From contig JAPPGI010000058.1 in assembly GCA_028874985.1 (NCBI GenBank), forward strand, positions 1-64,000: a DNA stretch of 64,000 nt. The letters run 5' to 3'. This DNA comes from Gemmatimonadota bacterium. GTDB taxonomy: Bacteria; Gemmatimonadota; Gemmatimonadetes; Longimicrobiales; Gaopeijiaceae. Under the pieces are notes generated by a model. It made no database searches and had not been told where the DNA came from. It worked only from the letters and a program-made list of their open reading frames with translations. The position numbers were made by a program, and so were the translations under genes. Of the stretch, positions 49,264-59,314 are shown in pieces (position 1 is the stretch's first letter; each line of letters begins with the position of its first letter).

Positions 49264-50334
49264 TCAGCGCCGCGTCCAGATAAGGATGACGCCGCAACCC
49301 GCAGACATGGAGTACCGGGCCGGCAAGCCCGCGGACGAAGGGTACACTTCGATTCCGGCCACCGCGTCGGGATTCACGAGGTCGTCGATCCCGGCCGCCT
49401 CCGTCCCGCCATCGTGAACCAGGAGGTCATCGAGGAACACGCGGGGGTAGCAATACCCGTCCGAGAGAGAGAAGCGGCCACTGCGGAGCACCACCCTGCG
49501 CTGAGTGCCGCTTGCCTCGACCGTGACCCCGGGGAGGCCTGTGAACAGATCCGTCATCTCGCTCGGCGTACGGGTTTCGATGTCTTCACGATCGAGGAAC
49601 TTCCCCCAACCGTCCTCCCGCCGCTCGTAGAACCCCGCATCCTGCAAGGCGGCTTCGCGCCTCTCGACAACGACTTTCAAGGGCTCCAGATGAACAGGGT
49701 CCACGGAAAGCGAAGCCTGCACGCTGGTCATGCGTCCGGGCACTACGCGGACCGTGTCGCGGCGCGTGGCGTATCCGATCTGGGCGAACTCGATGATGTG
49801 CAGACCCGCTGCCAGCCCGCCCAGCATGAACCCGCCCCGCTCATCGGTGAGAACGCCCCCCCGGCCCACTCGCACCGCCGCGCCCACCAGCGGAGAATCA
49901 TCTTCGCTCGTAGTAAGGATACCCATGATGCCCGTCATCAGCCCGCCACCTGCCCGGTCCTCACCGGCTTCGGGGGCTTCGCGGGCCGGGTGCATCGCCA
50001 GCACGAAGCCCCTGTCACGCACGACCGGAAAGTCGTCCACCACGGGGCTGTAGCCCGGGTGGGAGAGTCGAATGCGGTAGAAGCCGATCGCGATGGCGTT
50101 CAATTCGAACTTTCCCTCGGCGTCCGTTTCGAGCCGGATCTCCGTGCCCTCCACCACGACCACCGCACCCGGGAGCGGACTGCCCGTCGCCGCATCGATC
50201 ACCCGGCCGGTGATGCGAACCGTCTTCGGTTCCGGCTCCTGCGCCGCACCCGCGCCCGAGGGGCCGACGAGGCCGGCCGAGATGAGCGGCAGGAACCCAA
50301 GGGCGGCCCGCAAGGCGGGACCCACCGCCACCAC
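49264..50334 (-). CDS. Barrel-less CarboxypepD-regulatory/plug protein, copy 1
   Basis: 356 residues from a GTG that shares one base with the previous stop (TAGTG). After a signal peptide come two carboxypeptidase-regulatory-like beta domains: VRITGRVIDAATGSPLPGAV at about 38, and a second from about 135 with GGVLTDERGGFMLGGLAAG. Then a TonB-receptor plug-like domain from about residue 230 (DLFTGLPGVTVEASG, VFLDDLLVHDGG) ends in GIEVYPSSAGLPARYS and GVILIWTRR. TonB-dependent transporters continue into a 22-strand barrel at this point, but here the protein stops. It is third in a row of three paralogues. The function is unknown. Confidence 0.8.
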   Translation of the reverse strand: MVAVGPALRAALGFLPLISAGLVGPSGAGAAQEPEPKTVRITGRVIDAATGSPLPGAVVVVEGTEIRLETDAEGKFELNAIAIGFYRIRLSHPGYSPVVDDFPVVRDRGFVLAMHPAREAPEAGEDRAGGGLMTGIMGILTTSEDDSPLVGAAVRVGRGGVLTDERGGFMLGGLAAGLHIIEFAQIGYATRRDTVRVVPGRMTSVQASLSVDPVHLEPLKVVVERREAALQDAGFYERREDGWGKFLDREDIETRTPSEMTDLFTGLPGVTVEASGTQRRVVLRSGRFSLSDGYCYPRVFLDDLLVHDGGTEAAGIDDLVNPDAVAGIEVYPSSAGLPARYSMSAGCGVILIWTRR

Positions 50335-51512
50335 TACCGCCCCCGGCCCGGCTGGCCGGCGCTGCCGGTAATCCTCGTCCAGACTGCGATGACCCCGCAG
50401 AACGAGCCCCCCGCGAACTGGGGCGGAAGCCCCGCTTCGGTGTGGTAGATCTCGATTCCCGCGATGGCGTTGGTATTGAGGAAACTGTCCAGGTGGGCGG
50501 GTTCTGATCCGCCGTTTGCCGTGAGGACGCCATCCACGTAGACCCTGGGGAAGCAGCGGTGGTATCCCGGGAGACCATCGGAGCGTGGGCCAGTTGGAAT
50601 CCGCAACCGGCCGATGCGCAGCACGACGTACTTTTCGATGCCGTTGAACGGGTCGGGGTAGATCTCCACCCCCGGAATGCCGGTGAAGAGATCCGTCATC
50701 TCGGCGGGCCCTCGGTTCTCGATATCCTGGCGGTCGATGAATCTCCCGAAGCCCATATGCCTGCGGTGGTAGAAATCCACGTTCTGCAACCTGACTTCGC
50801 GTCTCTCGACGGATACCTCGATTGGGTCCAGCGCCACGGGGTCGACGGACAGCGACACCCGGACGTTGGTGACGCGGCCGGCCGTGACCCGGATGGTATC
50901 GGCCCGCGGGGCGTAGCCGATCATGGAAAACTCGATCACATGCTGTCCGGGAATGAGCCTGTCGAGCAGGAACTCGCCCCTCGCGTCCGTAAACGTGCCG
51001 ATCTGTCCCTGGCCCGCCCGCACGGTTACGCCACCGAGCAGAGCATCCGATTCGTCGGTCAGCACCCCGACAATCCCCGTCACCAGCTCGCCATCACTGT
51101 GCCCGACCGGTTGCATCGACGTCTCGAAGCCCCCGGTGCGCATGACCGTGAAGTCGCCGACCGCCGGATTGTACCGGGGATGGGAGAGTTCGAGGCGATA
51201 CTCGCCCACCGCGATGCTCGGAACCGTGAACTCCCCCTCGCTGTCGGTTTCGAGCTGGAAGCCCGGCTGGACGCTCAGCCCCCTGGATGCAACTGTCACC
51301 GCCACTCCGGGGATCGGATCGCCGGTAATCCCATCTACGACCCGGCCCGTGATCGAGACCATCTCCTGGGCCACAGCTTCCCGGCCGGAAGTGAGCGGCA
51401 GTGCCAGAAGCGGTATCACCGTGGCCCAGATCCATGCCCGGCAGCCCGCCACGCGGGACCGGCAACTCTCCCGGTTCGCGAATCGCCTAGCCAACGTTCT
51501 CCGATCAATCAT
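50334..51512 (-). CDS. Barrel-less CarboxypepD-regulatory/plug protein, copy 2
   Basis: 392 residues. The start at 51512 is chosen by the strong AGGAGG site about 8 nt upstream; the open frame continues further. It has the same layout as its neighbours: signal, VSITGRVVDGITGDPIPGVA, second regulatory domain GTFTDARGEFLLDRLIPGQH, then plug-like NRGPAEMTDLFTGIPGVEIY, a VYVDGVL turn and the end GIEIYHTEAGLPPQFAG with GVIAVWTR. It ends about 18 residues beyond that motif with no barrel. It is co-transcribed with the 49264 gene. Confidence 0.8.
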   Translation of the reverse strand: MIDRRTLARRFANRESCRSRVAGCRAWIWATVIPLLALPLTSGREAVAQEMVSITGRVVDGITGDPIPGVAVTVASRGLSVQPGFQLETDSEGEFTVPSIAVGEYRLELSHPRYNPAVGDFTVMRTGGFETSMQPVGHSDGELVTGIVGVLTDESDALLGGVTVRAGQGQIGTFTDARGEFLLDRLIPGQHVIEFSMIGYAPRADTIRVTAGRVTNVRVSLSVDPVALDPIEVSVERREVRLQNVDFYHRRHMGFGRFIDRQDIENRGPAEMTDLFTGIPGVEIYPDPFNGIEKYVVLRIGRLRIPTGPRSDGLPGYHRCFPRVYVDGVLTANGGSEPAHLDSFLNTNAIAGIEIYHTEAGLPPQFAGGSFCGVIAVWTRITGSAGQPGRGR

Positions 51513-51712
51513 GTGTTTTCCCTCCTGACGGCCTGCAACGCCTCTGTGATCCCGGGCCATCCCCGAAAAGCTGCTCAACACCTCGCAAAGCGCCCTCCGG
51601 AGGACCGGTGGCGCTCCTCGGCGAAAACCGCGCGACGAGCTTCGCGCCCCCGGATCGCGGTCCCCGCCGAGGTGACTCGCCGACGCGCCTCGTCACGAGC
51701 AGGGTGCGCCCC

Positions 51713-51730
51713 TCGCCAACTATCATATAG
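51713..51730 (-). promoter_or_regulatory. Conserved upstream box of plug protein copy 2
   Basis: TCGCCAAC followed by TATCATATAG on the plus strand, i.e. TATGATA then GTTGGCGA on the minus strand. The same pair occurs at 53139-53160 upstream of copy 3. TATGAT resembles a -10 box, though no matching -35 is visible. The rest of the 317-bp gap (51513-51829) is a long leader whose 5'-UTR end (GGCCTG, then TGTGATCCC) also matches copy 3. No gene was found in it. Confidence 0.45.
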
Positions 51731-51829
51731 AATCCGGACTACCGGTCGCCAGTCGCGGAAACGCCCCGGGAGGGCTACGACCCCGGCGGCGCCGCCTGCC
51801 CGTACAGCCGACGCCCGCACCTTTCGCTG

Positions 51830-53050
51830 TTAGCCCGGCCCGGTTTTCCGGCTGCCCACGCCCCTCACCCTCGTCCATATGACGATTACCCCGCAGCGGG
51901 CTCCACCGGCCTGGTACTTGGCCGGAAGTCCCGCCGTAGAGGGGTAGACCTCGATCCCGGCGATGGCCGCGGGAGCGAGCAGGTCGTCCAGCCTGGCCGG
52001 ATCCGCTCCGCCGCTGTGCGCCAGAAGGTCGTCGATGTACACCGCGGGGAAGCAGCGGTTGTATTCGGGTGGCTGAAGACCCTTGAACCTCTCTCTTCTT
52101 TCCTCGATCTGCTCGTCCGTCAGGGTCCTGCTGCGCCACGGCAGGCGGCCGGACCGCAGCACCACGAACTTGCCGAGGGAACTCGTGGGGTGCGTAAAGA
52201 GTTCCACCCCCGGCATTCCGCTGAAGAGATCCGTAACTTCCAGGGGTCCCCGGTTCTCGATGTCCAGGCGATCGATGTACTCACCGAAGCCCACCTGCCT
52301 GCGGTGGTAGAAGCCCACCTCCTGCAACCTGGCTTCGCGTCTCTCTACGGAGACGACGATGGGTTCGAGCCCTACCGGGTCGACGCTCAGCGACACCTCC
52401 ACGTTGGTGACGCGGCCTGCCGTGACCCGTATGGTGTCGGCTCGAGCGGCGTAGCCGATCATGGAGAACTCCAGCACGTGCTGGCCGGCGATGAGGTCGT
52501 CGAACAGGAACTCTCCCCTCGTGTCCGTAAAGGTGCCCGTCTGTCCCTGGCCCGTCCGTACGGTTACGCCGGAGAGAGCGTCGCCCGTTGCCGCGTCGGT
52601 GAGGACACCGACGATGCCGGTCAGCAGTTCGTCATCTCCGAGCGCGACCGGTTGCATCGAGGTCACGAAGGGTCCGGCGCGCACGACCGTGAAGTCGCCG
52701 ACCGAGGGATTGTAGAGGGGGTGCCTGAGTTGCAGCCGGTACTCGCCCACCGCGATGCTCTGCACCGCGAAACGCCCCGCGCTGTCGGTTTCGAGCTCGA
52801 GGTCCGGCTGGTCGTCGGGACTCCTGGACGCGAAGGTCACGGCCACTCCCGGGATCGGATCGCGGGTGAGCGCATCCAACACCTGGCCGGTGATGGAGAC
52901 CATCTCCTGGGCCGCCGCCTCCCGCCCGGAGAAGAGAAGGAGCGCCATCAGCGTCACGGCCGCGGTCCGCATGCCCGGGCAGCGTCCCATCGCGCGGGGC
53001 CGGCCAGGCCAACCCGCGAATTCCCGAAAGGGTTTTCCTTGATCCAACAT
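51830..53050 (-). CDS. Barrel-less CarboxypepD-regulatory/plug protein, copy 3
   Basis: 406 residues from the ATG at 53050 (GGGAG upstream). A basic N-terminus precedes the signal (TLMALLLFSGREAAAQ). Then come two regulatory-like beta domains (VSITGQVLDALTRDPIPGVA, and GTFTDTRGEFLFDDLIAGQH) and the plug-like domain (NRGPLEVTDLFSGMPGVELF, then VYIDDLLAHSGGAD). It ends GIEVYPSTAGLPAKYQAGG and GVIVIWTR. It is the most upstream of the three tandem paralogues and has its own leader and box. It may present or scaffold ligands at the outer membrane, which is inference. Confidence 0.8.
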   Translation of the reverse strand: MLDQGKPFREFAGWPGRPRAMGRCPGMRTAAVTLMALLLFSGREAAAQEMVSITGQVLDALTRDPIPGVAVTFASRSPDDQPDLELETDSAGRFAVQSIAVGEYRLQLRHPLYNPSVGDFTVVRAGPFVTSMQPVALGDDELLTGIVGVLTDAATGDALSGVTVRTGQGQTGTFTDTRGEFLFDDLIAGQHVLEFSMIGYAARADTIRVTAGRVTNVEVSLSVDPVGLEPIVVSVERREARLQEVGFYHRRQVGFGEYIDRLDIENRGPLEVTDLFSGMPGVELFTHPTSSLGKFVVLRSGRLPWRSRTLTDEQIEERRERFKGLQPPEYNRCFPAVYIDDLLAHSGGADPARLDDLLAPAAIAGIEVYPSTAGLPAKYQAGGARCGVIVIWTRVRGVGSRKTGPG

Positions 53051-53138
53051 TCGTTTTGTCTCCCAAGAGGGCCTGATATGGTCTCCGTGATCCCCCGGCG
53101 GTTGCTTTGGCAGGCCGCGAGTACCTTTCCAGGGGACT

Positions 53139-53160
53139 TCGCCAACGTATCATACACACT
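53139..53160 (-). promoter_or_regulatory. Conserved upstream box of plug protein copy 3
   Basis: TCGCCAAC-G-TATCATA on the plus strand, equivalent to the box at 51713-51730 but with one extra base. It lies about 90 bp upstream of the start at 53050. The adjacent leader also matches copy 2, so the duplication included regulatory DNA. Confidence 0.45.
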
Positions 53161-53322
53161 ACTCGTCCGTCGGGTTCACGAACATCGCACCGACCGCCGA
53201 CGACGGGGCCCGCGCACGACGCTTCGCGCGCGGATTACGCACCCGGTAACGCAATTATCGGGAATCCCGGCGACCGTCGCCAGTCGGGCGACCCTGCCGG
53301 CCCCACGGAGACCCCCGGGGCC

Positions 53323-53351
53323 TTGATCCCCGCCTGACTCTCCGCTACCAA
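53323..53351 (+). promoter_or_regulatory. Candidate promoter for the metH transcript
   Basis: TTGATC (53323-53328), 17-nt spacer, TACCAA (53346-53351). It would start a leader of roughly 237 nt before metH that contains the structured domain at 53401-53537. The gap 53051-53595 holds this promoter, the divergent plug-protein promoter and the leader, and no protein gene was supported. Confidence 0.35.
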
Positions 53352-53400
53352 TGGAATAGGGGTCGGCGACAGGCCGCCCCCGAAAGGGAAATCACGGCGA

Positions 53401-53537
53401 TTTGTGGCGTATTGCGGCCGGGAACAGCTAAAAAGCCACCCGCGGCGACGCGGGTCTTCGATGCCGCCGGACACAAAGCCGGGAGTTCCACCGGAGACCG
53501 GCCAACTCCCCGGTCCCGGAAGCTGTTTCGCCACAAA
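53401..53537 (+). ncRNA. Structured leader domain, candidate riboswitch upstream of metH
   Basis: Perfect long-range helices close this region. TTTGTGGCG (53401-53409) pairs with CGCCACAAA (53529-53537), and AACAGCT (53423-53429) with AGCTGTT (53521-53527), separated by a 13-nt bulge on one side. Inside are a 7-bp hairpin with a GCGA tetraloop (53438-53455) and a stem GGGAGTT/AACTCCC (53481-53487, 53504-53510) capped by CCGG-AGA-CCGG. GTGGC in the outer helix could alternatively pair with GCCAC at 53435-53439, a possible switch. CCGGAGACCGGCC resembles the cobalamin-riboswitch B12 box, but the rest does not fit that class. It starts roughly 60-195 nt before the metH start. Confidence 0.55.
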
Positions 53538-53595
53538 AGCGTCCATGGGACCCGGCCCGGCCGGATCCCCTACACGCCGGGCTCCGGTGAAGGAA

Positions 53596-56500
53596 ATGCG
53601 GCATCCAGTGAGACCTGCCAGGGCGAAGACCGGTACGCCGTGGAGGCATCGGCGAATTCGCGCTGTCGACCGGATCCTCGAAGAGCGCATCCTCGTGCTC
53701 GACGGCGCGATGGGAACGATGATCCAACGGTACGGCCTCGGCGAAGCCGACTTCCGGGGCGACCACTTCACCACCCACCCCACCCCGCTTCTCGGCAACA
53801 ACGACCTCCTCTCGCTCACCCGCCCCGACGTGATCGGCGAGATCCACCGCGCCTACCTGGATGCGGGCGCCGACATCATCGAGACGAACACGTTCAGCGC
53901 CACGCGGCTGCCCATGGCCGACTACGGCGTGGAGGACGCCGTCGGCGAGATCAACCTCGCGGCGGCCCGGATCGCGCGGCAGGCCGCCGACGAGTACGCC
54001 GCCCGCACCCCGGACCGGCCCCGCTTCGTGGCCGGCATCCTGGGCCCGATGAACCGCACGGCCTCGATCTCGGCCGACGTGAACGACCCGGGGGCGAGAC
54101 AGGTCACCTTCGAGGAACTCCGCACGGCGTACGGCGAGCAGGTCAGGGCCCTGATCGCGGGCGGCGTCGACCTCCTCATGGTCGAGACCATCTTCGACAC
54201 GCTGAACGCGAAGGCCGCCCTCTTCGCGATCCTGGAGGCGCGGGAGGCGACCGGCCGCGACGTCCCCATCATGATTTCGGGCACGATCACCGACCAGAGC
54301 GGCCGCACCCTCACCGGCCAGACCCCGGAGGCCTTCTACAATTCGCTCGGGCACGCGGCCCCGCTGTCGTTCGGGCTCAACTGCGCGCTGGGGCCCGACG
54401 CGCTGCGTCCCTACCTGCAGGAGCTGTCCACCGTCTGCGAGAGCCGGGTGAGCTGCCACCCCAACGCGGGTCTCCCCAACGAATTCGGCGGCTACGACCT
54501 GTCCCCCGACGACATGGCGCGCACCATGGGCGAGTTCGCCCGGGCCGGCTTCCTCAACCTCGCGGGCGGGTGTTGCGGCACCACCCCCGAGCACATCGCC
54601 GCGATCGCGGGGGCGGTCGCGGGGGTGGCACCCCGCCGACGCCCCGATCACCCCGTGCGCACCCGCCTCGCGGGCCTGGAACCCGTGACCATCGGCCCCG
54701 ACTCGCTCTTCGTGAACGTGGGCGAACGCACCAACGTGACCGGGTCGGCCCGCTTCGCCCGGCTGATCAGGGACGGCGACTACGAGGCCGGGCTGGAGGT
54801 GGCGCGGCAGCAGGTGCGGGGCGGCGCCCAGATCATCGACGTCAACATGGACGAGGGGCTGCTCGACGCCGAGGCGGCGATGGTGAGATTCCTGAACCTG
54901 ATGGCCGCCGAGCCCGAGATCGCCCGGGTCCCCTTCATGATCGACTCTTCGAAGTGGGAGGTGATCGAGGCCGGGCTGAGGTGCGTGCAGGGGAAGGCGG
55001 TGGTGAACTCGATCAGCCTCAAGGACGGCGAGGACGCGCTGCGGGAGAAGGCGCGCCTGGCGCGACGCTACGGGGCGGCGGTGGTGGTGATGGCCTTCGA
55101 CGAGAGCGGCCAGGCCGACACCGCGGACCACAAGGTGGAGATCTGCGCGCGCGCCTACGACATCCTGGTGCGGCAGGAGGGGTTTCCCGCCGAGGACATC
55201 ATCTTCGACCCCAACGTCTTCGCCGTCGCGACGGGGATCGCGGAGCACAACGAGTACGCGTTGGCCTTCTTCGAGGCGACGCGCCGGATCAAGGCGAATC
55301 TACCCCATGCGCTGGTGAGCGGCGGCGTCAGCAACGTCTCCTTCTCCTTCCGCGGGAGCCACGGGGTACGTGAGGCCATGCACTCGGCATTCCTGTACCA
55401 CGCGGGTCTGGCAGGGATGGATATGGGGATTGTAAACGCCGGTGCCATAGCGGTTTATGACGAGATACCCGATGAATTGCTCGAAGCGGTCGAGGATGTG
55501 CTGCTCAACCGGAACGAGGAGGCCACCGAACGCCTGACGGCCCTGGCGGGCAGCTACCGGGGAAGCTCCGGAGGGGATACGGACGACCTCTCGTGGCGCG
55601 ACGCTCCGGTGGAGGCGCGGCTCGGCCACGCGCTGGTCCACGGCGTGACCGACCACATCGAGGCGGACACCGAGGAGGCCCGGCGGGGGGCGGAGCGCGC
55701 GCTGGATGTGATCGAGGGGCCCCTGATGACGGGCATGAACACCGTGGGGGACCTCTTCGGTTCCGGGAAGATGTTCCTCCCTCAGGTCGTCAAGAGCGCC
55801 CGCGTGATGAAGCGGGCCGTGGGGTACCTGGTGCCGTACCTGGAGCGCGAGAAACCGGCCGGCGGCACGTCCCGCTCGGCGGGGCGCATCGTGCTCGCCA
55901 CCGTCAAGGGGGACGTGCACGATATCGGCAAGAACATCGTCGGGGTCGTGCTGCAGTGCAACAACTACGAGGTCTTCGACCTGGGCGTGATGGTGCCCGC
56001 GGAGGTGATCCTGGGGAAGGCGCGCGAGGTGGAGGCCGACATCGTCGGGCTCTCGGGACTGATTACGCCGAGCCTCGACCAGATGGTGCACGTGGCCTCC
56101 GAGATGGAGCGCACGGGAATGGACATGCCGCTTCTGATAGGCGGCGCCACCACTTCGCGGGTCCACACCGCGGTGAAGATCGAGGAGAGGTACTCGGGGG
56201 CCACCGTTCACGTGCTCGACGCCTCCCGGTGCGCGGCGGTGGCGGGCAAGCTCCTGGACCCGGTCAGCCGGGCTCCGTACTCCGCCGGCATTCGCGAAGA
56301 GTACGCCGCCGTTCGCCGGAGACGGCAGGCCCGGGGCAAGCGGGCTCCGCTCCTGGCGCTCGAAGAGGCCCGCGCGAACCGGCTGAGGCCGAATTGGAGC
56401 CGGTACCGCCCCGTCCGGCCCACCTTCACCGGCGACCGGGTCTTCCCGAGCGCTCCGACGCGCCCCGTCGCCGGTGGCCACGGCCCATCGGCCGCGCCAC

Positions 56501-57471
56501 CGGCCCGGACCCGCCCCTCCTACGACCTGGACGAACTCACCGGACGGATCGACTGGACCCCCTTCTTCCACACCTGGGAGCTCAGGGGCACCTTCCCCGA
56601 CATTCTCGCCGACCCGGATACCGGGCCCCAGGCCACCTCCCTGCACGAGGACGCACTCGCACTCCTCGGCCGCATCCGGCGCGAGGGGCTGTTGGCCGCG
56701 CGGGCGGTGGTGGGACTCTACCCGGCAAACGCGGTGGGGGACGACATCGTCTTCTACTCCGACGAGTCTCGGAGCGACGTGCTGGCGGTGTTGCCATGCC
56801 TGCGCCAGCAGTTCGCCAAGGGAAGCGCGCGGCCGAACCTGTGCCTGGCGGATTTCGTGGCACCGGCGGGCTCGGGGGTGGCCGACTGGGCCGGGGCGTT
56901 CGTGGTCACCGCCGGGGAAGGCGTCAACGAGCTCTGCGCCGAATTCGAAGCCGCGGGGGACGACTACCGGAGCATCCTGGCGAAGGCGCTCGCAGACCGC
57001 CTCGCCGAGGCCTTCGCCGAACGGATGCACGAGCGCGTGCGCAGGGAGTTCTGGGGATACGCGCCGAAGGAGTCTCTGACGAACCGGCAGCTGATCGCCG
57101 AGGAGTACGGCGGAATCCGGCCGGCGCCGGGGTATCCGGCCTGTCCGGATCACTCGGGCAAGCGGACCATCTTCGAGTTGCTGGACGCGGAGAGGATCGG
57201 GGTGACGCTGACCGAGAGTTGCGCCATGTTCCCCGCCGCGTCCGTATCCGGGCTCTATGTCGGGCACCCGGACAGCTTCTATTTCGGGGTCGGACGGGTC
57301 GGTCGCGACCAGCTCGAGGACTACGCGCGGCGCAACGGGATGGGCGTGGAGGAAACCGCACGGTGGCTGGCGCCGAACCTGGCGGAGGAGGACGGGACCG
57401 CGGGCTCGGGCCGCGTGGTGACGGCGGCGGGCGCGGGCGCGGGCGGGCGGGCGGAGGGCGGCGGTGGCTGA
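53596..57471 (+). CDS. metH: Cobalamin-dependent methionine synthase
   Basis: 1291 residues from the ATG at 53596 (GGTGAAGGA upstream); the longer open frame crosses the structured leader. All four modules are present: homocysteine domain ([16 protein letters not shown], zinc site GLNCALGP and [11 protein letters not shown]), pterin domain ([15 protein letters not shown]), cobalamin domain with lower-ligand motif [16 protein letters not shown], and the SAM-dependent reactivation domain ([32 protein letters not shown]). It methylates homocysteine with methyltetrahydrofolate. It overlaps the next gene by 8 bp. A Gly/Ala-rich end follows the last domain. Confidence 0.97.
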
Positions 57472-59314
57472 CCTGCGTGCGATGCTCGGCGAGGGGCGGG
57501 CTCTCGTGGCCGACGGCGCGATGGGCACGATGCTCTACGAACGGGGCGTCTTCCTGAACGTCTGCTACGACGAACTCAACGCCACGCACCCCGAGCTCAT
57601 CGCGGAGGTGCACGCCCGGTACCTCCGAGCCGGAGCGGAGATCCTGGAGACCAACACCTTCGAGGCGAACCCGGTCAAGCTCTCGTCGTACCGGCTGGAG
57701 GACCGAACCGAGGAGCTGAACCGGCGCGCCGCCGGGATCGCAGTGCGGGCGGCGGGTGGCCGGGCCGCGGTGGCGGGCGCGATCGGGCCGCTGGGCATCC
57801 GCGTCGAGCCGCTGGGGCCGACATCGCTGGAGGAGGCCCGGGAGTACTTCGGCCGCCAGGTGGACGGGCTGCTGGAGGGCGGGGTCGACGGGTTCATCCT
57901 GGAGACCTTCTCGGACCTGGCCGAACTGGAGCAGGCGCTGCGGGCGGTGAGGAGCCGGTGCGGCCTGCCCGTGATCGCCCAGGTGACGGTGGAGGGCGAC
58001 GATGGGAAGACCGCCTCGGGCGTCTCCGTCGAACAGGCGGCGCGCGCGGCCGACGAGTGGGGCGCCGACGCGGTTGGACTCAACTGTTCGGTCGGCCCGG
58101 CCGTCGTGCTGGAGGCGCTGGAACGCATGGCCCGGGTCACCTCCCTCCCCCTCTCCGCCCAGCCCAACGCGGGACAGCCCGTTGCCGTGCGCCAGCGCAA
58201 GATGTACCTCACCCGGCCCGACTACATGGCCCGGTACGCGCGCCGCCTGGTCGACGCGGGGGCGCGCATCGTGGGCGGCTGTTGCGGCACCACCCCGGAG
58301 CACATCCGCAGCATCGCCGAGCATGTCAGGGCGAGCCGGCCACGCGCGTCGCCGGTGCGGATCACACGCCGGGCGGCCCCCGATGTGCGCGGCGGGCCGG
58401 TCCGGCCGCTGGCGGCGCGTTCGACCCTGGGCCGCCGCCTCGCGGACGGCGACTTCGTCACCTCGGTACAGGTGCTGCCCCCCCGCGGATGGAACACCGA
58501 AGCCCTCGTGCAGGACTGCCGCGCCCTGGCCGCGGCCGGCGCCGACGTGATCGCCGTGCGGGAGGACCGCGGCGCCGCCCGGCTGGGTGTGTTCCCCACC
58601 GCCGCCCTGATCGCGCGCTCGTGTCCGGGCGTCGAGCCGCTGGTCCACTACACCTGCCGCGACCGCAAGCTCCCGAGGATGATCAGCGATCTCCTGGGCG
58701 CGGCGGCCACCGGCATCCACAACGTCCTCCTCCTCACCGGCGACCCCCCGGGTCCCGCCCCCTACCCCGACTACCGGTCCGTCGTCGACGTCGACTCGAT
58801 CGGCCTCACGAATGTCGTCACGGGTCTGAACAACGGGGTCGACCCCTCCGGCAACGATCTCGGCGAGCCGGCGGGCTTCGTGGCGGGCGTCGCCCTCGAC
58901 CAGTCGGGGCGCGACCGGAGGCGGGAACTGGCGCGATTCCGCTGGAAGGTGGACGCCGGAGCCGACTTCGCCGTGACCCGGCCGGTCTTCGACACCGGCG
59001 CGCTGCGGCAATTCCTGGCCGAGGTTGAACGGAAGATCCCGGTGATCGCGGGAATCCTGCCGCTCGAGAGCTCCCGGCAGGCGGAGTTTCTGCAGAACGA
59101 GGTTCCGGGCGTTCATGTGCCGGACCGGGTGGTGGAGCGGATGCGCCGGGCGGAGGGGCGGGGTTCGGGCCGGGCCGCCGCCGAAGGCGTGGAGATCGCG
59201 TGCGGGATCGCGGGAGAGCTGCGGGGCCGGGTCGCCGGGGTGCAGATCTCGGCCGTTCGCGAGGGGGTGGGAGCCGTGTTGGGGGTGGTGGAGGGGCTGG
59301 GGGTCCGTGGATGA
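57464..59314 (+). CDS. Homocysteine methyltransferase-MTHFR fusion
   Basis: 616 residues from a GTG overlapping metH. The N-terminal half (about 1-295) is a homocysteine S-methyltransferase ([14 protein letters not shown], zinc cysteines in GLNCSVGP and [11 protein letters not shown]). The C-terminal half (about 315-615) is methylenetetrahydrofolate reductase ([69 protein letters not shown]). The same fusion is known in Bacillus as YitJ. With MetH it makes methyl-folate and uses it in adjacent proteins. The last codons lie inside repeat copy F. Confidence 0.95.

What the first reader, a model, noticed from the sequence alone, without database searches (positions are those of the whole stretch)
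53401..53537. Strongly structured leader upstream of metH, no riboswitch class fits
Two perfect long-range helices (9 bp and 7 bp) enclose a GNRA-capped 7-bp hairpin and a second stem with a CCGG-AGA-CCGG tip, all between a candidate promoter and the metH start. GTGGC of the outer helix can also pair with GCCAC at 53435-53439, giving two exclusive folds. The sequence CCGGAGACCGGCC resembles a B12 box, but the GGGAA/GGUG core and GCCACUG elements of cobalamin riboswitches are not in order. MetH needs both cobalamin and SAM, so control by either is plausible.
Basis: partly seen in the sequence, partly recalled or inferred. Interest (0 to 1): 0.72.

Follow-up and report, generated by a model that had tools for sequence, protein, structure and literature searches.

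The report
Compact SAM-II riboswitch upstream of metH
The stretch before the vitamin-B12-dependent methionine synthase gene carries a shortened SAM-II-type RNA element that the standard RNA-family cut-off misses; it is predicted to sense S-adenosylmethionine and would switch the gene off when that product is plentiful, and the same genome carries a match to a second, unrelated SAM-riboswitch family before another likely methionine operon.

Summary
Window 53391-53440 is a divergent SAM-II (RF00521) type pseudoknot: P1 53395-53398/53417-53420, P2a 53404-53408/53435-53439, core GAUUU...UAUUGC...GCUAAAA. Rfam misses it (15.3 bits, cut-off 36), but a model built without genus rows finds it as the only hit at E<=1 in the genome (54.6 bits), and a metH leader of another genus in the family passes Rfam's cut-off (53.2 bits). 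In this genus P1 is 3-4 bp and P2a 5 bp (20 of 20); outside, 6 bp (41 of 87) and 3 bp (71 of 87) are commonest. Terminator-like hairpins follow 55 of 87 elements outside the genus but 2 of 19 inside, so control is perhaps translational (inferred). The genome also has a SAM-I match; 49 of 395 phylum genomes carry both classes, although a 2007 survey found no species with both. SAM binding is untested.

The parts
53391..53440 (+). SAM-II-type aptamer (whole model match)
   Evidence: R2 (no genus rows): 54.6 bits, E 2e-9, only hit at E<=1 in the genome; R1, which includes this row, 63.6 bits; RF00521 15.3 bits, below cut-off 36
53395..53398 (+). P1 5' strand CGGC (pairs 53417-53420)
   Evidence: alignment A1 and pair counts; P1 length 4
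53399..53403 (+). GAUUU, third (triplex) strand of the SAM site by homology
   Evidence: near-invariant in A1 (largely forced by the search pattern); role from passages of PMC6061858
53404..53408 (+). P2a pseudoknot 5' strand GUGGC
53412..53415 (+). UUGC, 5' strand of the SAM-binding part of P2
53417..53420 (+). P1 3' strand GCCG
53427..53434 (+). GCUAAAAA, 3' core of P2 / SAM site
   Evidence: SAM-contacting U by homology with PMC6061858
53435..53439 (+). P2a pseudoknot 3' strand GCCAC
53438..53455 (+). hairpin H1 directly after P2a, ACCCGCG-GCGA-CGCGGGU; no U-tract
   Evidence: kept in 6 of 6 leaders compared, window included; closing pair G-C in two, A-U in four
53481..53510 (+). second hairpin with CCGG-AGA-CCGG tip; the tip is shared only with L006 among six leaders
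   Evidence: alignment
53521..53537 (+). anti-aptamer strand AGCUGUUUCGCCACAAA (pairs 53401-53409 and 53421-53429)
   Evidence: 2 of 5000 shuffles; CGYYRC part kept in 6 of 6; predicted pair probability 0.71-1.0 in 5 of 6, 0 in L004
53540..53543 (+). CGUC, outer part of the anti-aptamer strand pairing 53396-53399
   Evidence: UCGCC in the other five leaders
53589..53594 (+). Shine-Dalgarno-like GAAGGA
   Evidence: sequence; aligned with GGAGGA or GAGGAG of relatives
53608..57471 (+). metH, GTG start, 1287 aa
   Evidence: start placed from the conserved GTGA; NCBIfam NF007024 1996 bits, cut-off 1497; Pfam
57464..59314 (+). bifunctional homocysteine S-methyltransferase / methylenetetrahydrofolate reductase, overlapping the metH end
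   Evidence: NF006396 606 bits, cut-off 453; Pfam

Best explanation
The metH leader carries a compact SAM-II-type pseudoknot aptamer (53391-53440) that is predicted to bind S-adenosylmethionine and would lower expression of metH, and probably of the overlapping second methionine gene, when SAM is abundant. Shown by sequence comparison: the pseudoknot, its unchanged core and its place before metH in many genomes of the phylum. Inferred: without SAM, the strands 53396-53409 (P1 and P2 5' sides) pair with the downstream anti-aptamer strand 53521-53543; with SAM, P1 and P2a form instead and release that strand. Because this genus mostly lacks the U-tract terminators of its relatives, the release is taken to act on translation of metH (about even odds); which partner the freed strand then takes is not established. 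The confidence given is for the first sentence.
For: R2, trained on 81 rows without any from this genus, finds one hit at E<=1 in the window's genome, at 53391-53440, 54.6 bits, E 2e-9, and hits 20 of 23 genus genomes (misses G003, G010, G016). L024, a metH leader of another genus in the family, scores 53.2 bits with RF00521 (cut-off 36) and shares the core, though its J is longer. P1 covaries where the search pattern left the 5' side free: columns 5-31 U-A 31, G-C 23, C-G 6; covariation score 0.152 against 0.097 in shuffles, 0 of 500 reaching it, at most 0.061 when slid. Core bases matching the SAM-V/SAM-II ligand site are kept (passages of PMC6061858). The downstream gene is metH in 64 of 106 pattern loci; representatives of other downstream groups are SAM synthetase, a Cys/Met PLP enzyme, homoserine dehydrogenase and a PLP-family enzyme, four more gave no Pfam family. 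Anti-aptamer helix: 6 of 6 leaders keep CGYYRC opposite GUGGCG with only wobble-compatible changes. Terminator-like hairpins 2 of 19 in the genus, 55 of 87 outside.
Against: RF00521's cut-off is not reached by the window (15.3 bits), and no Rfam family's by 19 of 19 other genus leaders tested. P1 is only 4 bp (3 bp in 14 of 20 genus members). The core was largely fixed by my search pattern, so its invariance overstates conservation. Two of the five measures do not exceed shuffles (pairs changed on both sides, 115 of 500 as high; further pair types, 421 of 500), and P1 cells are paired in only about 75%. The two outer P2a pairs are unpaired in 45 and 68 of 101 rows; they are a genus trait. The inner AACAGCU/AGCUGUU helix is not kept in relatives. 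The predicted fold of L004 does not use the anti-aptamer helix. Pairing of the freed strand with the Shine-Dalgarno region is no better than shuffles (p 0.13-0.57). For the window the composite anti-aptamer pattern alone is weak (looser form in 9.7% of shuffles; strict form not met). Three of 23 genus genomes lack the element. No binding or expression data.
Confidence: 0.84

Rival explanations
1. Same SAM-II aptamer, but the output is premature transcription termination at or after hairpin H1, through a U-poor or Rho-dependent terminator, not translation. (A rival to the output step only, not to the aptamer.)
For: H1 sits where many relatives have U-tract terminators directly after P2a; its two first pairs overlap P2a; [quoted passage not shown]
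Against: No U-tract after H1 in the window (UCUUCG) and terminator-like sites in only 2 of 19 genus loci; the only two terminator-like sites found in 53200-53720 are on the minus strand.
Confidence: 0.35
2. A SAM-II-derived aptamer that has changed ligand (for example SAH or another adenosyl compound).
For: P1, J and P2a lengths changed in the genus; variant riboswitches with changed ligand exist for SAM-I (passages of PMC10853860).
Against: The core positions that contact SAM by homology are unchanged and the gene context is still methionine synthesis.
Confidence: 0.07
3. A cobalamin riboswitch or B12-box element.
Against: No cobalamin match at E<=10 in the leader, while the same model finds one over its cut-off elsewhere in the genome, 75 bits; the box-like tip is missing from 4 of the 6 leaders compared.
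Confidence: 0.02
4. The stretch is coding: an upstream-extended MetH, or chance GC-rich folding.
For: A GTG frame is open from 53404 into metH.
Against: Aptamer-to-LDGAMG spacing (less a constant) is 197, 217, 221, 243, 190 and 239 in the six nearest leaders, so the frame is not kept; conservation is concentrated in the aptamer, H1 and the start region.
Confidence: 0.01

Closest known systems
SAM-II (SAM_alpha) riboswitch, RF00521
   Same: Pseudoknot with P1 and P2, core GAUUU / UAUUGC / GCUAAAA, before methionine genes, presumed OFF switch (passages of PMC1273637)
   Different: P1 3-4 bp, J 6-9 nt, P2a 5 bp in this genus; score below the Rfam cut-off; target metH, whereas PMC4239095 passages list metY, hom, metA, metX, metC and metW in Proteobacteria; no U-tract terminator
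SAM-V riboswitch (metY type)
   Same: Same ligand-binding triplex core; translational control (passages of PMC6061858)
   Different: SAM-V has an extra P3 helix, a 2-bp P2a and usually the Shine-Dalgarno inside P2a; no SAM-V match here at E<=10
SAM-II long loops, RF01726 (named in passages of PMC2864571)
   Same: Some relatives of the window (L028, L030, L039, L070, L074) have long J segments that look hairpin-bearing by eye
   Different: The window has the opposite, a shortened J; no RF01726 match at E<=10 in the leader
SAM-I riboswitch, RF00162
   Same: SAM-sensing class with a match over its cut-off in the same genome, before a MetX-like gene followed by a Cys/Met PLP gene
   Different: Unrelated fold; controls a different step
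Cobalamin riboswitch, RF00174
   Same: A class one might expect for a B12 enzyme
   Different: No match in the leader; one over the cut-off elsewhere in the genome

Membership tests
SAM-II (RF00521) | Score at or above Rfam's gathering cut-off (36 bits) | tested here: not met
   15.3 bits; 0 of 19 other genus leaders. Out-of-genus L024 meets it, 53.2 bits; 221 of 395 phylum genomes have a match over it. Hence filed as a SAM-II-type variant, not as a formal RF00521 member
SAM-II (RF00521) | Stem P1 closing the loop that holds the pseudoknot strand | tested here: met
   4 bp in the window, 3-4 bp in 20 of 20 genus members, commonest 6 bp elsewhere; covariation at columns 5-31 and 8-28
SAM-II (RF00521) | P2 pseudoknot between the P1 loop and the 3' tail | tested here: met
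   5-bp P2a plus UUGC/GC-AA; columns 18-74 C-G 84, U-G 11, U-A 5, other 1 of 101
SAM-II (RF00521) | Conserved SAM-site nucleotides (GAUUU, UAUUGC, GCUAAAA) | tested here: met
   All present in the window; contact roles taken from passages on SAM-V/SAM-II
SAM-II (RF00521) | Located before methionine or SAM biosynthesis genes | tested here: met
   metH; metH in 64 of 106 loci
SAM-II (RF00521) | Binds SAM and rejects SAH | not testable with these tools
   needs in-line probing
SAM-V | Extra P3 helix and Shine-Dalgarno within P2a | tested here: not met
   Start codon 168 nt after P2a; no SAM-V match at E<=10
Cobalamin (RF00174) | Rfam model match | tested here: not met
   none at E<=10 in 53100-53800

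The most novel reading that the evidence does not exclude
A new compact SAM-II subtype in which P1 has shrunk to 3-4 bp while P2a has grown to 5 bp, working through an anti-aptamer strand that invades P1 and P2, in bacteria that split methionine synthesis between two unrelated SAM sensors: SAM-I on the metX operon and SAM-II on metH. If the two classes keep the affinities reported for other members (about 4 nM and 10 uM, passages of PMC1273637), the pair would make a two-threshold switch: first step off at low SAM, remethylation off only at high SAM.
Probability: 0.35. Interest if true: 0.68.

Novelty: new variant of a known kind. Interest (0 to 1): 0.52.

Why it matters
It extends SAM-II-type control to the B12-dependent methionine synthase in Gemmatimonadota (323 of 395 sampled phylum genomes carry a match to the element; not all of these were checked for metH) and exposes a compact subtype that Rfam's model does not report in this genus. 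[quoted passage not shown] That makes a direct test possible of why a cell would keep two different RNA sensors for one metabolite.

Tried and rejected
Cobalamin, SAH, SAM-V and long-loop SAM-II readings: no Rfam match at E<=10 in the leader. The SAH search of the own genome found nothing but rang in no control genome either, so it says nothing.

Anti-Shine-Dalgarno pairing of the freed strand, which looked attractive by eye (for example CUCCUCGCC against GGCGGAGGAG in L003 and L006), is not better than shuffles in any of six leaders (p 0.13-0.57); dropped as evidence.

A wider antiterminator, a copy complementary to CGCUAAAA in the loop of the downstream hairpin, is striking in single loci (L060, L101, L125) but reaches p<=0.05 in only 14 of 87 out-of-genus and 2 of 19 genus loci, and U-tracts inflate such matches; kept as a lead only.

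A second type of rival pairing in the other 14 genus leaders (P2a 3' strand with a downstream GGC) is predicted in some and not in others; not claimed. The sigma-70 scan found no promoter.

Full report
What was checked. In the whole window one tRNA alone reaches an Rfam cut-off. With relaxed limits the second of four matches over 53100-53800, and the best on the metH strand, is SAM_alpha (RF00521, the SAM-II riboswitch) at 53384-53451, 15.3 bits, E 0.88, cut-off 36. That would normally be dismissed as chance.

Relatives. A search with the MetH N-terminus in 59 genomes, the window's own included, gave 34 with a match; 30 loci were kept. The leaders of 27 of these 30 share one block, GGCGATTTGYGGCRTATTGCGGCC...GCTAAAAAGCCAC or close to it; L021, L022 and L026 lack it. 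In L024, a metH leader from another genus of the family, the block scores 53.2 bits with RF00521, over the cut-off (14 loci were given to that call, and none of the other 13 passed). A degenerate pattern of the block found 106 contigs, by their titles mostly Gemmatimonadota, with Fermentibacteria, Anaeromyxobacter, Nitrospirae, Planctomycetota and others; the phylum name of the window rests on these titles. An alignment of 101 distinct elements shows P1, the P2 pseudoknot and the core. P1 covaries at positions whose 5' side the pattern left free (columns 5-31: U-A 31, G-C 23, C-G 6, G-U 1, unpaired 40 of 101; some lineages have a shifted or bulged P1). The covariation score is 0.152 against a shuffled mean of 0.097, 0 of 500 shuffles as high, and the slid controls reach at most 0.061; but two of the five measures, pairs changed on both sides (115 of 500) and further pair types (421 of 500), do not exceed the shuffles. 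Much of the core is fixed by the pattern itself, so its invariance there is not independent evidence; the Rfam model, made by others, of 395 phylum genomes over its cut-off.

Independent test. A model built from 81 rows without any from this genus (R2; other same-family rows were kept) finds one hit at E<=1 in the whole genome, at 53391-53440, 54.6 bits, E 2e-9, and hits in 20 of 23 genus genomes (E-values of such models are rough). The misses are G003, G010 and G016; the metH leaders of the first two carry no such block, and G016 gave no metH match. The model of all rows (R1, which includes the window) hits 323 of 395 phylum genomes. So the window element is a divergent relative of SAM-II, although it fails Rfam's cut-off, as do 19 of 19 other genus leaders tested.

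Why Rfam misses it. In 20 of 20 genus members P1 is 3 or 4 bp, the J segment 6-9 nt and P2a 5 bp; in 87 out-of-genus elements the commonest values are P1 6 bp (41) and P2a 3 bp (71). In 22 of the 87 the simple count gives P1 of 1-2 bp, in many of which a bulged P1 is visible by eye. The aptamer counted from P1 to the GCC is 43 nt in the window, against a median of 52 outside the genus. The bases that contact SAM in the related SAM-V structure (third-strand U's, U-U-G of P2, the U and A's of GCUAAA; passages of PMC6061858) are present.

What it controls. The downstream gene is MetH (Pfam; NCBIfam NF007024, 1996 bits), GTG start at 53608 by conservation, followed by an overlapping bifunctional homocysteine S-methyltransferase / methylenetetrahydrofolate reductase. 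Across the 106 pattern loci metH follows on the same strand within 1.5 kb in 64; some flanks are too short to tell. A group of 18 has SAM synthetase (one representative tested). Of seven further representatives tested, three are a Cys/Met PLP enzyme, homoserine dehydrogenase and a PLP-family enzyme; four had no Pfam family. A Proteobacterial survey reported SAM_alpha only in Rhizobiales and Rhodobacterales, before metY, hom, metA, metX, metC and metW (passages of PMC4239095). I found no paper joining SAM-II with Gemmatimonadota (open-licence papers only, and only under those words).

The rival fold. The nested pair of matches occurs in 2 of 5000 shuffles. In the six nearest leaders (window, L006, L003, L004, L005, L009; grouped by eye on their shared J sequence) the aligned 3' strand reads CGCCAC, CGCCGC, CGCUGC, CGUCAC, CGCCAC, CGCCAC, always complementary to the invariant GUGGCG when G-U is allowed. 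Five of six also hold UCGCC a few bases on, complementary to GGCGA at P1; the window has CGUC instead. Predicted pair probabilities are 0.71-1.0 in five, 0 in L004. The strict composite pattern occurs in 2.1-6.4% of shuffles of the five leaders that meet it; the window meets only the looser form, which occurs in 9.7% of its shuffles. Since the leaders are related these are not independent. Hairpin H1 (53438-53455) is kept in 6 of 6, its closing pair G-C in two and A-U in four.

Mechanism. I read this as an OFF switch: SAM stabilises P1/P2a, otherwise the anti-aptamer strand holds their 5' sides. Terminator-like hairpins with a U-tract follow the element in 55 of 87 out-of-genus loci but in only 2 of 19 genus loci, so translation is somewhat the likelier output here; a Rho-dependent or U-poor terminator at H1 remains open. 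The step from the freed strand to the ribosome is not identified: pairing with the Shine-Dalgarno region is not better than chance.

Two SAM sensors in one genome. The same genome has a SAM-I match (82.3 bits, cut-off 44.4) before a MetX-like gene (best NCBIfam match NF006449, 289.8 bits, just under its cut-off 296) and a Cys/Met PLP gene; MetX-like genes lie in the three other genus SAM-I loci checked. SAM-I is found in 20 of 23 genus genomes. By hand comparison, 49 of 395 phylum genomes have both classes at E<=0.01, a few of the SAM-II matches weak (44 counting only SAM-I matches over the cut-off), 18 of them in this genus. G001 and G021 are single-contig genomes with both on that contig, so mis-binned contigs cannot explain those two. 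[quoted passage not shown] two searches for a later report gave none, which does not show that there is none.

Verdict. A known aptamer kind in a new compact variant and a setting I did not find described, with a plausible but incompletely resolved expression platform.

Noticed in passing
L194 (G000:C115:12492-12603, minus): SAM-I riboswitch match in the same genome, before a MetX-like and a Cys/Met PLP gene; both SAM classes in 49 of 395 phylum genomes.
   Followed up: partly
L192 (G000:C119:14036-14216): A cobalamin riboswitch match over its cut-off elsewhere in the genome, 75 bits.
   Followed up: no
L028, L030, L039, L070, L074, L099: SAM-II-type elements of relatives carry an extra hairpin-like insert in the J segment (by eye), resembling long-loop SAM-II.
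   Followed up: no
L040, L081, L112: An ATG follows the P2a 3' strand within a few bases (GCCAGGATG and similar), a layout that suggests direct translational control.
   Followed up: no
L060, L101, L125: The hairpin region just downstream holds a complement of the aptamer core GCUAAAA, a possible antiterminator.
   Followed up: partly
window 53435-53455, minus strand: H1 plus the complement of GCUAAAAAGCC makes terminator-like sites on the opposite strand.
   Followed up: no
window 49264-53050, minus strand: Three adjacent related genes with carboxypeptidase-regulatory-like domains and weak TonB plug matches, transcribed away from metH.
   Followed up: no
L022 (G010) and L021 (G003): metH leaders of two genus members without the element; in L022 an imperfect inverted repeat lies upstream of metH.
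   Followed up: no
genus g12 (G033, G122, G128, G140, G197, G252, G300, G396): A genus of the same family with SAM-I but no SAM-II match in the eight of its genomes listed.
   Followed up: no
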